A stretch of DNA of 37,879 bases, from assembly GCA_903844815.1 (NCBI GenBank), contig CAIMVD010000073.1, positions 1-37,879 on the forward strand, given 5' to 3'. The notes under the pieces are model-generated. The model saw nothing but the letters and a program-made list of their open reading frames with translations. It did not search any database and was not told the DNA's origin. A program made the translations under genes and the position numbers. This stretch comes from an uncultured Bacteroidota bacterium. Lineage in GTDB: Bacteria; Bacteroidota; Bacteroidia; Bacteroidales; VadinHA17. This document shows positions 13,257 to 18,359 of the stretch, one piece after another (the first letter of the stretch is position 1; each line of letters begins with the position of its first letter).

Positions 13257-13907
13257 ATCAGGAGTTTTTTATTAGCCGAAATTAGTGATTTTTGAATTAC
13301 AAGCTACTATCTATTACTTTCCGGGCTAGTGACAACTTATAGTAATTATTTTGCATTTAAAATGATTTCGGATTTCGGAATGATCAGATTACTGTTTTAA
13401 ATCCGTAACACAGAATCCGCAATCTTCACAAAGTAATTGTTTCTGTCCAAAGCAATTCATCGGTACAATTTGCCAGATTACCTTTTAAATTGCAATAGGT
13501 AGGTATTCAACAATCCGTTTCCTTAATCGAAAATAAATTATTATGTAACAAAAAAAAAAACATAATTTTGAGATAACGCTGCATTGTTCACTTCATCTTC
13601 TAAATAGAGCCTTTAGGTGAAAAAAGACTTGGAAATATTACATCTGGGAAATGTTTCCAATATTGTTTTCTGCCAAGCCGACGGAAGCAACAGGTTTTGA
13701 TATCATAGCAAAAACAATAACACTATCTGACAGATATAAAATTCCAGTAGCTGGAAGTAAAATGAAAAAAATCAATTACAAAATAAACAACTTCTCCAAA
13801 TACAAAGTATTCAATAGTTTGTGAAGTAAACTAATATAATATATCGGATTTTTACAAAATAAAGTTGATAATTGTGTTCTCGTTTTGGAACTTTGTAACC
13901 GATAAAT
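13257..13907. other. A+T-rich gene-poor stretch
   Basis: No secure gene. It holds an 11-base A-run at 13550-13560 bracketed by ATTATG and CATAAT, and one short plus-strand frame at 13651-13824 (listed separately). A loose promoter match (GTTG at 13864, GAACTTTG at 13888) lies ahead of the Cys-rich peptide gene. Base composition is visibly more AT-rich than folP or tmk on either side. Confidence 0.5.
13651..13824 (+). CDS. Short open frame, coding status doubtful
   Basis: A 57-codon frame from ATG to TGA. The frame is also open for another ten codons upstream of the ATG. The product would be basic (many Lys in the C-terminal third), with no signal peptide or recognised motif. It could be a small gene of the adjacent peptide/propeller block, a decayed remnant, or chance in AT-rich DNA. 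Confidence 0.2.
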   Translation: MFPILFSAKPTEATGFDIIAKTITLSDRYKIPVAGSKMKKINYKINNFSKYKVFNSL

Positions 13908-13931
13908 ATGTCCAACTTAATACCATTAAAG

Positions 13932-14213
13932 ATGAAACCTTTGGTAAAGTTTGTAACAATCTTATTCTTTGGCTTATTTATAGCCAATACCCCATTGTCT
14001 TCAAAGGAAGATGTTTATTATGGCCCCACCGGCAGCGGAGCTGTTATCACCTGCTCTGATGGCAATCACGGAAGGTGCTTCATGGAGTACGCAAACTGGT
14101 GCTCATATTACACGGTAGTTACTCTCGAATGCAAATGGACCGGCTACCAATCCAATTTTTGCAACATCATTCTGGTAAAGTTATACAATATTTGTTTTGA
14201 CTATTTACTTTAA
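13932..14213 (+). CDS. Small Cys-rich secreted peptide precursor (unrecognised)
   Basis: 93 residues: a hydrophobic signal (about 4-22, KFVTILFFGLFIANT) followed by a short mature part with six Cys (41, 49, 57, 67, 77, 88) and many aromatic and Gly residues (YYGPTGSGAVITC, CKWTGYQSNFC). The frame also has an ATG eight codons earlier at 13908, but the ATG at 13932 opens directly onto the signal peptide. I cannot place it in a named family. The arrangement of a small Cys-containing exported peptide followed by a 6-bladed propeller lipoprotein resembles the NVEALA-type peptide loci of Bacteroidales, without the NVEALA motif itself. Disulfide formation and a signalling or toxin role are inferences. 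The last 16 residues are hydrophobic and may be a poor ending or a membrane-active tail. Confidence 0.6.
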   Translation: MKPLVKFVTILFFGLFIANTPLSSKEDVYYGPTGSGAVITCSDGNHGRCFMEYANWCSYYTVVTLECKWTGYQSNFCNIILVKLYNICFDYLL

Positions 14214-14373
14214 CAGGAGGTGTATTCTAGATCTAAATTATGAAGATAAGCCCGGGAACTTCTCACTTCCCCCTGTGAGAGACACAACAATTCTAATCAC
14301 AAAAATGCCTGCAAAATATTTAGCTATATATACTTTAACATAGTAAATAATTATTTGTCAGATTTTTATTAAA

Positions 14374-15555
14374 ATGCTGCTTTCAAAAGTTCAATATTTA
14401 AGGGGTGCAAGACTCTCATTAACCATTGCTCTTATTGGTCATCTTATTTTTTTCAACCGGTGTAAAGAAGCGGACAGGATGGAGGAAATGCATGCACTCA
14501 ATGAAGGGACTACATTTGAAATAGATCTATCCAATACTTCTGAAACGTCCTTTTTCAACATTTTTGATTCAGTAGAACTTGTTAAGCTTGAGACTACTCC
14601 AAATTCAATAATCAAAGAGGTAACCAGAATTATCCCGTACATGAATGAGATGTTCATTCTGGATGCCACTCAAAACTCAGTGCTTCGGTTTGACAATAAC
14701 GGAAAATTTCTCACAAGAATACAGAAGATTGGCAATGGACCAGGTGAGTTTACTCTTTTGTATGATATTAATATAAATCACTTTAGCGAAAACCTGGAAC
14801 TACTTAATCCCCGGGGAGAATTATTAGTCTTCAGCCGGGATGGTGAGTTTATTCATTCCTTTGCTATTCCACTCCTTGCCTCAGATAAATTTGCTATTCT
14901 TACTGATGACATTATTCTCTTTTATTCCATGTTCGAACCAAAGAAACTTTCTTATTTTTCCAGGAAAAGGAATAAAATAATAAAACAGGAGTATGAATTT
15001 CCTGAAAAAATTGTAAGCACTCCCCTGATATCATCCAAATCCTCTCCTTTTAACAGGACCGATTCTACTACTATATCCTTCTTCCAGGGCTTTACGAATG
15101 ATATCTATAAGGTCACACAATCCGGATTAAGTCTCAGATTAAGATGGAATTTCGCTAATAAGAATTTTGATTATCACAAACTTCCCGAGGGAGGAGACTT
15201 CGAGTATTACACAAATTATTTAAGAAACAGCAAGTACGTTCATAGTTTTAATTATTATCTGGAAGACAGTACTCTAATCCTAACGAGGTTCATCTTTGAC
15301 AAGACCTGGCATACTTTGATTCTCAACAAAAAGACACAAGCATACAGGATAATTAGGAGATTTACTGAAAAGCTTGTCCCTCCGGCAAATCCTGTGCTTT
15401 TTGATAGAGGAATTATAACGGCTATTGATCCGATGATGATACAGATAATTATAAATGAAAAAGTGCTTAATAATAAGAATCTTAAAATATTGAGTGGATT
15501 GGATGCCAGAGATAATCCGGTTGTGGTAAAATACTATTTAAAGCAAAACCAATGA
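14374..15555 (+). CDS. 6-bladed beta-propeller (DUF5128-type) lipoprotein
   Basis: 393 residues. The N-terminus is basic then hydrophobic (LSLTIALIGHLIFFNRC) and ends in a Cys, giving a weak lipobox, so it is probably a lipoprotein. The body fits the Bacteroidota 6-bladed beta-propeller family: a leading blade around FDSVELVKLET (residues 67-77), IPYMNEMFILDATQNSVLRF, and the typical KIGNGPGEFTLLYDI loop near residue 120, with repeated beta-strand segments to the end. Such propellers bind ligands or partner proteins on the cell surface; none has a well-established enzymatic role that I can name. It overlaps the thioredoxin-fold gene by the four bases ATGA, so the two are translationally coupled. 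The peptide gene lies 160 bases upstream in the same direction. Confidence 0.8.
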   Translation: MLLSKVQYLRGARLSLTIALIGHLIFFNRCKEADRMEEMHALNEGTTFEIDLSNTSETSFFNIFDSVELVKLETTPNSIIKEVTRIIPYMNEMFILDATQNSVLRFDNNGKFLTRIQKIGNGPGEFTLLYDININHFSENLELLNPRGELLVFSRDGEFIHSFAIPLLASDKFAILTDDIILFYSMFEPKKLSYFSRKRNKIIKQEYEFPEKIVSTPLISSKSSPFNRTDSTTISFFQGFTNDIYKVTQSGLSLRLRWNFANKNFDYHKLPEGGDFEYYTNYLRNSKYVHSFNYYLEDSTLILTRFIFDKTWHTLILNKKTQAYRIIRRFTEKLVPPANPVLFDRGIITAIDPMMIQIIINEKVLNNKNLKILSGLDARDNPVVVKYYLKQNQ

Positions 15556-16142
15556 AGAAATATCTGGTATCAATTTTGGTCATTTCGGTACTTACCTTTG
15601 TGCTGGTATCAATTTTTTCTTTACAACAGTTTAATCAAAGGAGAATGCTTAAGAAAACACCTGTTGAAACCTTCTATTTTAACGATTTACTGCAATCCTC
15701 AATATCAAACGAATGTGTTGAAATAATTAATCCTCTGGTCTATAAAGGAAATGATACAGTAAACAAAAATTATTTTTTCGATCTTATCAGGGATAAAACT
15801 CTTGTATTCAGATTTTCAGGGGAAGCGTGCAATACCTGTATAGAATTCGCTTTGGAAGGACTTAAAAAAAAATTTGTTGACTTTGCCACAAATGACAGAA
15901 TCCTTTTAATTGGTTCAAGTATAAACGAACGAATAAAGGAACATTATTATGGAAAGCCCGTTATTAGTTTTTATTCTTCAAACTTGGGCATTCCAATAGA
16001 AGAGTATAATATTCCATTTATGTTCATTGCCGATAAAGACAGAATAGTCAAGATGATTTTTGTTCCTGAAAAAACTATGCCGGAATTATATGAACTTTAT
16101 TTAAATACAGTTTATGAACGGTATTTCTCAGGTTCTCAATGA
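15552..16142 (+). CDS. Membrane-anchored thioredoxin-fold protein with CxxC
   Basis: 196 residues with an N-terminal membrane anchor (about 4-23) and an extracytoplasmic domain. A thioredoxin-like active site, FSGEACNTCIEFAL, carries Cys93 and Cys96 directly after a beta strand (TLVFRF). A later strand-loop with IPFMFIADKDRIVKMIF matches the cis-Pro (IP) and C-terminal beta-hairpin of the TlpA/AhpC-TSA type of fold. A redox or disulfide-handling role for the Cys-rich peptide two genes upstream is attractive but inferred. The start codon overlaps the propeller stop. The family is not one I can name more exactly. No terminator follows. Confidence 0.7.
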   Translation: MKKYLVSILVISVLTFVLVSIFSLQQFNQRRMLKKTPVETFYFNDLLQSSISNECVEIINPLVYKGNDTVNKNYFFDLIRDKTLVFRFSGEACNTCIEFALEGLKKKFVDFATNDRILLIGSSINERIKEHYYGKPVISFYSSNLGIPIEEYNIPFMFIADKDRIVKMIFVPEKTMPELYELYLNTVYERYFSGSQ

Positions 16143-16540
16143 TGATAATTTAACAAATTCCGGCTTTCAGGGATAAGTATTTTTTACTTACAAAGAAAAC
16201 AAGAGGTAACACAAAGGAAATAAGTGATTTCAGATATAATCATTACTCCGTTTTTATTTAACGAAATCAATGAGTGACTCTAAGACCCTCGTATTTCAAT
16301 AAAAAGAATCAACTTAATTCCTCTTCAACATATTCAAAATCTAACTGTTTTTACTATTTCTTCCAAAAGGTAACAGATGGATTCTTCTCCTTTCTCAATT
16401 TAACCAGGGTAAAAGGAGAAAAATCGTGTATAATTCAAATCTGTCAACGTAGTAGTAAATTATGTTCCAATTAAGTTTCCATACATTTTATTCTTTGGCA
16501 ATGCATTATTACATTTGTGCTGAAAGAAAATGATGACCAC
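16143..16540. other. Gene-free A+T-rich intergenic stretch
   Basis: No gene seen. Bases 16190-16220 (ACTTACAAAGAAAACAAGAGG then TAACACAAAGG) look like a decayed copy of the CACAAAGG-type repeat found intact at 32820-32917. A 9-bp inverted repeat, TTCTCCTTT at 16385-16393 with AAAGGAGAA at 16412-16420, could form a hairpin but has no T-run. Confidence 0.45.
16510..16517 (+). promoter_or_regulatory. Possible -7 box TACATTTG ahead of tmk
   Basis: Exact match to TAnnTTTG, 23 bases before the tmk ATG. A TTTG lies at 16494-16497, but the spacing (12 bases) is shorter than the usual 19-21, so the -33 assignment is doubtful. Confidence 0.35.
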
Positions 16541-17228: not shown

Positions 17229-18359
17229 ATGAAGATAGTGAAATTAGCATGCAGGATAATTATTGGACTTACGTTTATGTTTTCCGGAATTGTAAAGGCT
17301 ATTGATCCTCTAGGTTCAGCTTATAAGTTTCATGATTATTTTCACGCTTTCAATCTCGGTTTTTTTGACAAGCTCAGTCTTCCGCTTGCAATTTTACTCT
17401 GCACCGTCGAATTTATTGCAGGATTTTCAGTTATAACAGGTATTAAGCAAAAGACAGGAACAGTGCTCGCATTTTTGCTGATGCTTTTCTTCACCCCTCT
17501 AACTTTTATACTTGCACTGACAAACCCTGTTTCTGATTGCGGATGTTTTGGCGATGCAATCAAACTCACAAACTGGCAAACCTTCGGTAAAAATATTATA
17601 CTGATTATTCCGGCAATAATCCTTTTTGCTGAGAGGAAAAAGGTTAAACCTTTTTTCAGATCCGGGAAGGAATTGATTATGTTGTTTTCAGCAATAATCA
17701 TTTTCCTGGTCTTTTCTGTCAGCAACCTTATTTTGCTTCCAGCCATCGATTTTCTGCCCTACAGGGAAGGCGTAAGAATTGCCGATCAGATGGTAGTGCC
17801 TGAAGGAGCAGCTTCTGATGTGTATGCAACAACCTTTATTTATGAAAAAGAGGGAACCCGCAAAGAATTCACTTTAAGCAATTATCCTGCAAACGACAGC
17901 ACCTGGAAATTTATAGAGCAGAAATCAGTGCTTGTTAAAAAGGGCTATGAGCCTCCTGTTCACGACTTCAGGATCTCCACTTTAAAGGGAGAAGATATTA
18001 CGGAACAACTGATTAGCGGACAGAACTATGCGCTTCTGATGATCACGAAGAAACTTGGGGAGGCAGATAAAAAACATCTTACAGCAGGATTTGAGCTCGG
18101 GAAAAGTGTATTGATCAGGGGAATCGATTTTTATGTGGTTACGGCATCCGGATCAGATGAATTAAACACTTACGATAATGGGCTTATGTTTTGTTCAGCC
18201 GATGAAACAACACTAAAGACGATGATAAGGGCTAACCCGGGATATATTCTGATCAGCAATGGAACCATTGCAGGAAAATGGTCATGGGCAACTGTTCCTG
18301 ATGCTGATTGGTTCGTAAAATATCAGTCCGGAAATAATCCCGGAGTAATGAATAAATAA
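17229..18359 (+). CDS. BT_3928-family DoxX/MauE-like membrane protein
   Basis: 376 residues. The first half is a four-helix DoxX/MauE-like membrane domain (helices near 5-22, 50-70, 78-97, 118-135) with the conserved DCGCFG loop (103-108; Cys104, Cys106). A fifth helix near 148-172 leads to an extracytoplasmic domain of about 200 residues that resembles a thioredoxin-type fold at its end (GYILISNGTIAGKWSW) but has no CxxC. This architecture matches the BT_3928 family that sits next to tpiA in Bacteroidales. The biochemical role is not established; a redox or quinone-linked function is suggested by DoxX and MauE relatives. It starts one base after tmk and ends 55 bases ahead of tpiA. Confidence 0.85.
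   Translation: MKIVKLACRIIIGLTFMFSGIVKAIDPLGSAYKFHDYFHAFNLGFFDKLSLPLAILLCTVEFIAGFSVITGIKQKTGTVLAFLLMLFFTPLTFILALTNPVSDCGCFGDAIKLTNWQTFGKNIILIIPAIILFAERKKVKPFFRSGKELIMLFSAIIIFLVFSVSNLILLPAIDFLPYREGVRIADQMVVPEGAASDVYATTFIYEKEGTRKEFTLSNYPANDSTWKFIEQKSVLVKKGYEPPVHDFRISTLKGEDITEQLISGQNYALLMITKKLGEADKKHLTAGFELGKSVLIRGIDFYVVTASGSDELNTYDNGLMFCSADETTLKTMIRANPGYILISNGTIAGKWSWATVPDADWFVKYQSGNNPGVMNK

What the first reader, a model, noticed from the sequence alone, without database searches (positions are those of the whole stretch)
13932..16142. Candidate peptide system: Cys-rich secreted peptide, propeller lipoprotein, membrane thioredoxin
Three adjacent plus-strand genes encode a small exported peptide with six Cys, a 6-bladed propeller lipoprotein and a membrane-anchored CxxC thioredoxin-fold protein. 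The last two overlap by ATGA. The block is more AT-rich than folP and tmk on either side. A plausible working model is a secreted, disulfide-bonded peptide whose oxidation state is handled by the thioredoxin-fold protein and which is bound by the propeller at the surface. The arrangement resembles NVEALA-type loci but the peptide lacks that motif. The peptide-processing model is inference.
Basis: partly seen in the sequence, partly recalled or inferred. Interest (0 to 1): 0.75.

Follow-up and report, generated by a model that had tools for sequence, protein, structure and literature searches.

The report
Secreted disulfide peptide, propeller, thioredoxin cassette
Three neighbouring genes, for a small exported cysteine-rich peptide, a propeller-shaped protein and a membrane-anchored disulfide-type enzyme, form a mobile module that recurs in Bacteroidota bacteria and probably makes and recognises a secreted peptide whose task is still unknown.

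Summary
The 93-aa six-Cys peptide has relatives in 4 of 116 other genomes of its GTDB family and in G282 of another family; all share four Cys. The other two Cys are lost together in two relatives, suggesting they pair. L022, L023 and L103 keep the order peptide, propeller, membrane CxxC protein. The CxxC protein models confidently (pLDDT 90.8) as a thioredoxin fold. Of 35 small CxxC genes examined, the window's included, 29 have a propeller nearby, 24 an exported Cys-rich small ORF, 23 both, and 8 a signal peptidase I gene. A Phocaeicola plasmid carries NVEALA peptide, propeller, redoxin and lepB side by side. In the window the cassette is an AT-rich insertion of about 3.2 kb between folP and tmk, which are direct neighbours in 26 of 26 relatives; a LytTR gene upstream, whole in three relatives, is a broken remnant here. 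The own genome also pairs GG-leader six-Cys peptides with propellers, some beside VKOR-thioredoxin fusions. Best reading: a secreted disulfide peptide with its own thiol oxidoreductase and a partner propeller. The enzyme's action and the propeller's role are inferred.

The parts
13295..16479 (.). Inserted stretch of about 3.2 kb between folP and tmk (ends estimated from where sequence shared with relatives stops and resumes)
   Evidence: folP and tmk are 77-395 bp apart in 26 of 26 relatives that hold both, among 29 other loci fetched; GC 34% of the gene block against 42-46% for the flanking genes
13641..13824 (+). Broken remnant of a LytTR-only regulator gene: two pieces in different frames, with about 44 codons of the relatives' gene missing between them
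   Evidence: tblastn of the L022 and L021 LytTR proteins (the L023 result was cut off in the output); PF04397 in L022 at E 1e-14
13864..13895 (+). Candidate promoter GTTG-N20-GAACTTTG ahead of the peptide; L022 has TTTG-N20-GAATTTTG at the same place
   Evidence: alignment; Bacteroidota -33/-7 consensus is recalled; weak
13932..14213 (+). Exported Cys-rich peptide precursor, 93 aa, Cys at 41, 49, 57, 67, 77, 88; N-terminal hydrophobic signal
   Evidence: homologues and invariant Cys; codon pattern
14374..15555 (+). PF17170 (DUF5128) six-bladed propeller, probably a lipoprotein
   Evidence: Pfam 131.8 bits, cut-off 22.9; lipobox canonical only in relatives (by eye)
15552..16142 (+). Membrane-anchored thioredoxin-fold protein with CxxC (C93, C96) and invariant P155
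   Evidence: AlphaFold2 pLDDT 90.8 with helix 2-35; Foldseek; alignment of 24 members

Best explanation
The block is a moving gene cassette that makes one disulfide-bonded secreted peptide. The precursor is exported by Sec and cut by a signal peptidase (inferred from the signal; a separate signal peptidase gene lies near several related loci, not here). Its Cys pair in the cell envelope, with the anchored thioredoxin-fold protein as the dedicated thiol oxidoreductase or isomerase (fold shown, role inferred). The propeller is the peptide's partner; most likely it recognises the peptide at the producer's own surface, as immunity or receptor protein (inferred). The peptide most likely acts between bacteria (inferred). 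The LytTR regulator gene that stands upstream in three relatives has decayed in the window.
For: Peptide frame conserved with four invariant Cys in six sequences; C57 and C88 present together in the window, L021 and L022 and absent together in L023 and L024. Thioredoxin fold, CxxC and Pro invariant in 24. Linkage: 29, 24 and 23 of 35 small CxxC genes with propeller, Cys-rich exported ORF, both; without the five seed loci 24, 19 and 18 of 30; such ORFs number 3 in 171.6 kb of background. Signal peptidase I near 8 of 35 (five of the eight confirmed by Pfam). Phocaeicola plasmid with the same series, annotated by others. Own genome: 12 of 20 propellers with a Cys-rich peptide upstream against 7 of 117 control genes, p 7e-8; C39-like/VKOR/thioredoxin fusions in two of these clusters and a third by model. 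Precedent: bacteroidetocin loci need a thiol oxidoreductase gene for full activity (PMC6671954, passages).
Against: No binding or redox result exists. The peptide's structure prediction failed (pLDDT 52). Many propellers have no detected peptide (8 of 20 own, 40 of 51 entries elsewhere). GG core and propeller similarity do not correlate (rho -0.08, p 0.72), which gives no support to one-to-one pairing. The own genome's second CxxC-propeller pair (L049) has no Cys-rich ORF directly upstream. Bacteroidetocin producers seem to lack an immunity protein, so immunity is not a given. The peptide criterion was set after seeing examples.
Confidence: 0.5

Rival explanations
1. Peptide signalling: the peptide is a pheromone, the propeller its surface receptor or carrier, and the LytTR protein the transcription regulator of the response.
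For: A LytTR-only gene stands directly upstream in L021, L022 and L023; its weak best NCBIfam match is AgrA, far below cut-off. ECF-sigma-like genes lie near some propellers of the own genome (L049, L052; recognised by eye).
Against: The regulator is broken in the window while the other three frames stay intact; no histidine kinase or other transducer was seen in the cassette; LytTR genes were not looked for in the wider set beyond the loci, where only these three loci matched.
Confidence: 0.25
2. The peptide is not an effector but a substrate or metal-binding part of an envelope redox or stress system formed by propeller and thioredoxin.
For: Some CxxC-propeller pairs have no detected peptide: 6 of 29 with propeller. 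The fold is also close to peroxiredoxins by E-value.
Against: Peptides beside the module differ widely and no Pfam family matched five of six tested; related peptides are NVEALA members; other clusters use secretion of GG-leader peptides by C39 exporters. Diversity of this sort is unusual for a fixed substrate.
Confidence: 0.15
3. The window's copy is a decaying, perhaps silent remnant of the cassette.
For: LytTR remnant; less canonical signal site and lipobox than in relatives (by eye); scarce distribution, 4 of 116 other family genomes.
Against: All three frames are intact and keep the six Cys, the CxxC and P155. This rival concerns only this copy, not the module.
Confidence: 0.1

Closest known systems
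NVEALA loci of Bacteroidales (Pfam PF14055; e.g. Phocaeicola vulgatus plasmid NZ_CP096966.1)
   Same: Sec-type small Cys-containing peptide, then 6-bladed propeller, then CxxC protein; the plasmid's redoxin is in the same family as the window's (E 4e-36)
   Different: Window peptide lacks the NVEALA motif and the Pfam match; no lepB or transglutaminase-like gene in the cassette; only the signal region aligns in profile comparison. In many NVEALA loci the CxxC protein is another, lipoprotein-like one that my model does not match (by eye)
Bacteroidetocins (PMC6671954, passages seen)
   Same: Bacteroidota secreted Cys peptide with a thiol oxidoreductase in the cluster; deletion of that gene lowers activity
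   Different: GG leader, C39 ABC transporter, four Cys and a TM protein; the word propeller does not occur in the text; no immunity protein
GG-leader peptide clusters of Bacteroidetes (TIGR04149-like; PMC4573289, passages seen)
   Same: The own genome has such peptides beside propellers
   Different: Exported by C39 transporters, not Sec; own peptides score below the TIGR04149 cut-off
MauD/MauE of methylamine dehydrogenase (PMC7794033, passages seen)
   Same: MauE is speculated there to help form disulfides; a MauE-domain gene lies beside a related module in L198
   Different: No methylamine dehydrogenase was sought or seen; the MauE-domain gene after tmk in the window is a conserved neighbour (103 of 114 family genomes have the gene), not part of the cassette

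Membership tests
NVEALA peptides (PF14055) | NVEALA motif before the mature part | tested here: not met
   absent from the window peptide and L021-L024; L103 has VVSEALA
NVEALA peptides (PF14055) | Pfam profile match | tested here: not met
   no match for the peptide or anywhere in the own genome at E <= 1
NVEALA peptides (PF14055) | profile-profile relation beyond the signal | tested here: not met
   only signal-region columns align: probability 88 with L103 in the alignment, 37 without it
NVEALA peptides (PF14055) | gene context with propeller and CxxC protein | tested here: met
   PF17170-type propeller tagged in 10 of 30 NVEALA loci, further propellers TolB-like
Bacteroidetocins | double-glycine leader and C39 ABC transporter | tested here: not met
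   signal-type N-terminus; no such gene among the ORFs at 11.5-18.5 kb
Bacteroidetocins | thiol oxidoreductase in the cluster | tested here: met
   by fold and CxxC only
Bacteroidetocins | kills other Bacteroidota | not testable with these tools
   needs an assay
DUF5128 six-bladed propellers (PF17170) | profile match above cut-off | tested here: met
   131.8 bits, cut-off 22.9
Membrane-anchored TlpA/ResA-like thioredoxins | N-terminal anchor, thioredoxin fold, CxxC and conserved Pro | tested here: met
   Foldseek ResA and CcmG TM 0.55-0.58 on target length, 0.43-0.46 on query length; no Pfam family above cut-off
Membrane-anchored TlpA/ResA-like thioredoxins | redox action on the neighbouring peptide | not testable with these tools
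   needs biochemistry
TIGR04149 GG-leader peptides (own-genome clusters) | score above curated cut-off 25 | tested here: not met
   four of the eleven GG peptides were tested: 20.2, 20.5, 13.6 bits and no match

The most novel reading that the evidence does not exclude
Bacteroidota hold a phylum-wide, mobile system of diverse disulfide peptides for which PF17170 and TolB-like propellers are the dedicated recognition proteins. It uses two production lines: Sec export with an anchored thioredoxin, often with its own signal peptidase and a transglutaminase-like lipoprotein, and C39 export with a VKOR-thioredoxin fusion. The peptides, alike in little but their Cys, would decide which cells recognise or antagonise each other.
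Probability: 0.35. Interest if true: 0.85.

Novelty: new variant of a known kind. Interest (0 to 1): 0.62.

Why it matters
Propellers of this kind exist in many copies in some genomes (21 matches in this one, the window's included) and are named only after their fold. Their linkage to exported Cys-rich peptides and to disulfide-type enzymes gives them a testable role. The plasmid copies in Phocaeicola from human faeces suggest that the system moves in the gut. Ten paper searches listed no paper that by title or abstract treats NVEALA peptides or the function of DUF5128 or TolB-like propellers; one hit holding BF3164 once (PMC1887533) was not opened, and most subscription papers are not held.

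Tried and rejected
Peptide structure prediction: pLDDT 52, not used. NVEALA membership by profile: only the signal aligns. Co-divergence of GG cores and propellers: none seen. Viral contigs: no relative. PADLOC: no match. Solved structures by sequence for the propeller: NHL-repeat proteins and one putative exported protein at low scores. Repeats flanking the insertion: none convincing. The first genome-contig scan with the single peptide found nothing; the second, with alignment A1, gave the four family members again.

Of the ten other genomes only G282 was kept. Seven of the ten loci were opened; L060, L067 and L068 were not, but have stops inside the match.

Controls to read with care: five of the seven control positives are genes of the module itself (a TolB-like propeller in L048; CxxC genes in L112, L115, L126, L131), and the 51 entries called other genomes hold duplicates, seed loci and two own-genome copies (L104, L150). 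In the PF17170 sample alone (L134-L163) 7 of 35 entries have a peptide. One own-genome propeller at a contig start was left out for lack of upstream sequence. The signal peptidase model was built from the five loci that then match it; outside module loci it also hit L007, a chance locus, and the own housekeeping gene (L164, L165). An early note of mine gave the window's -33 box as TTTG; it is GTTG.

Full report
Observation. The three frames lie where stated and the last two overlap by ATGA. The middle one is a PF17170 propeller. The third has no Pfam match above cut-off but a confident model, mean pLDDT 90.8: a helix at 2-35, then a thioredoxin fold. Foldseek gives 2-Cys peroxiredoxins the best E-values (from 9.5e-7, TM 0.4-0.5) and ResA and CcmG better TM-scores on the target length (0.55-0.58; 0.43-0.46 on the query length). 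C93, C96 and P155 are invariant in an alignment of 24.

The peptide is real. A search of 117 family genomes found the own copy and four convincing relatives, G101, G103, G050 and G090 (E 2e-21 to 8e-6). The named records behind them are Bacteroidales or Bacteroidetes metagenome bins. Of 393 order genomes one more was convincing, G282 (L103). All six share Cys 41, 49, 67 and 77, and I39, G47, T70, G71 and N86. C57 and C88 of the window are both present in L021 and L022 and both absent in L023 and L024, as expected of a pair; in L103 the alignment there is unsure. Third codon positions differ most between the window and three relatives.

Neighbours. In L022 and L023 the order is LytTR-only gene, peptide, propeller, CxxC gene. 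L021 has LytTR gene and peptide and then ends. LytTR was confirmed by Pfam in L022, in the other two by likeness to it. L103 has a signal peptidase gene, then peptide, propeller and CxxC gene. In the window the LytTR gene is a remnant: a piece like residues 13-28 in one frame, followed at once by residues from 73 on in another.

Insertion. About 3.3 kb lie between the starts of folP and tmk in the window. Thirty loci around the gene after tmk were fetched, one of them the window's own. Of the 29 others 26 hold matches to both folP and tmk, and in all 26 these are 77-395 bp apart. G050, which has the cassette on another contig, is among them with 148 bp (L189). In G103 the cassette lies between a polyphosphate-kinase-like and an amidase-like gene (names by eye). 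It is AT-richer than its flanks in both genomes: 34% GC against 42-46%, and 38-43% against 51-53%. No convincing flanking repeats were found, so the route of transfer is unknown.

How general is it? The CxxC family matched in 25 of 393 order genomes and 9 of 188 phylum genomes, the own genome counted in both; a few matches are larger TlpA-like proteins. I examined 43 regions: 38 fetched and five known. In 4 of 43 no ORF of the family was found again; 35 of the other 39 are small CxxC proteins. Of these 35, 29 have a propeller on the same strand within 2.5 kb, 24 an exported Cys-rich small ORF within 3.6 kb, 23 both, and 8 a signal peptidase I gene within 3.6 kb; without the five seed loci 24, 19, 18 and 7 of 30. 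The same ORF criterion gave 3 in 171.6 kb of background. Five of the eight signal peptidase genes were confirmed by Pfam, as was one more beside a propeller in L142. In L111, L112 and L114 the order is peptide, CxxC gene, propeller. A Phocaeicola vulgatus plasmid reads NVEALA, 6-bladed propeller, redoxin, lepB, O-antigen ligase, hypothetical, transglutaminase, propeller. A P. dorei plasmid has NVEALA, propeller and a protein of the same CxxC family, E 1e-30. Lipoproteins in L131, L117 and L124 are related to the plasmid's transglutaminase (E 2e-34, 4e-28, 3e-16).

A second production line in the same genome. Of 20 own propellers with at least 250 bp upstream, 12 have a Cys-rich peptide upstream, 11 with a GG leader and the window's with a signal; 7 of 117 control genes do (Fisher p 7e-8). 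Five of those seven controls are module genes themselves. Ten of the eleven GG cores have exactly six Cys and one has four; leaders are 47% identical on average, cores 24%, shuffled cores 21%. Two clusters hold fusions of a C39-like domain, VKOR and a thioredoxin domain, with C39 ABC exporters and HlyD; L054 matches the fusion by model. Two different disulfide-type enzymes thus stand beside Cys-rich peptides that share the propeller.

Against. In the other loci 11 of 51 propeller entries had a detected peptide upstream; in the PF17170 sample alone 7 of 35. GG core and propeller likeness do not correlate. The own second CxxC-propeller pair (L049) has a small HTH-like ORF directly upstream, not a Cys-rich one. 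Among the 35 small CxxC genes 6 lack a propeller and 11 a peptide, some of them near a contig end. The peptide criterion was made after seeing examples.

Mechanism. Shown: conserved peptide, fold, linkage, insertion. Inferred: Sec export, disulfides, action of the CxxC protein on the peptide, binding by the propeller, use between bacteria. The bacteroidetocin paper gives the precedent: four-Cys GG peptides, a thiol oxidoreductase gene whose deletion lowers activity, the statement that Bacteroides lack the general disulfide machinery, and no sign of an immunity protein (PMC6671954, passages).

Verdict. The module is real, wide and mobile. By sequence the peptide is not an NVEALA member; by context it works like one. 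Whether it serves antagonism with self-recognition or signalling is open.

Noticed in passing
L048, L049, L050, L052, L053, L054, L047 (own-genome contigs): Eleven GG-leader peptides, ten with exactly six Cys in an otherwise unlike core, each just upstream of a PF17170 propeller; some beside C39-like/VKOR/thioredoxin fusions and C39 ABC exporters.
   Followed up: partly
L103 3237-3899, L106 2175-3041, L108 735-1487, L124 437-1321, L126 802-1473, L142 368-1243: Signal peptidase I genes beside the module, confirmed by Pfam. The own genome has only one such gene, at another place.
   Followed up: partly
L117, L124, L131 and L248 11710-13602: Transglutaminase-like lipoproteins recur near the module and are related to the one on the Phocaeicola plasmid.
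   Followed up: partly
L111, L112, L114, L115: Another peptide type with a CC and two further Cys near the C-terminus stands directly before the CxxC gene; in L111, L112 and L114 the propeller follows. The divergent gene looks like MoeA (by eye).
   Followed up: no
window 17229-18359; L198 542-1033: The gene after tmk is a BT_3928-type MauE-domain protein, found in 103 of 114 family genomes; a separate MauE-domain gene lies beside a related module in L198.
   Followed up: partly
L049 6551-9340: A 929-aa TPR-CHAT protein lies between two propeller loci of contig C196.
   Followed up: no
whole genome G000: The assembly has 6.37 Mb in 411 contigs, more than any family genome listed (1.9-5.3 Mb among those shown); contamination is given as 3.78%.
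   Followed up: no
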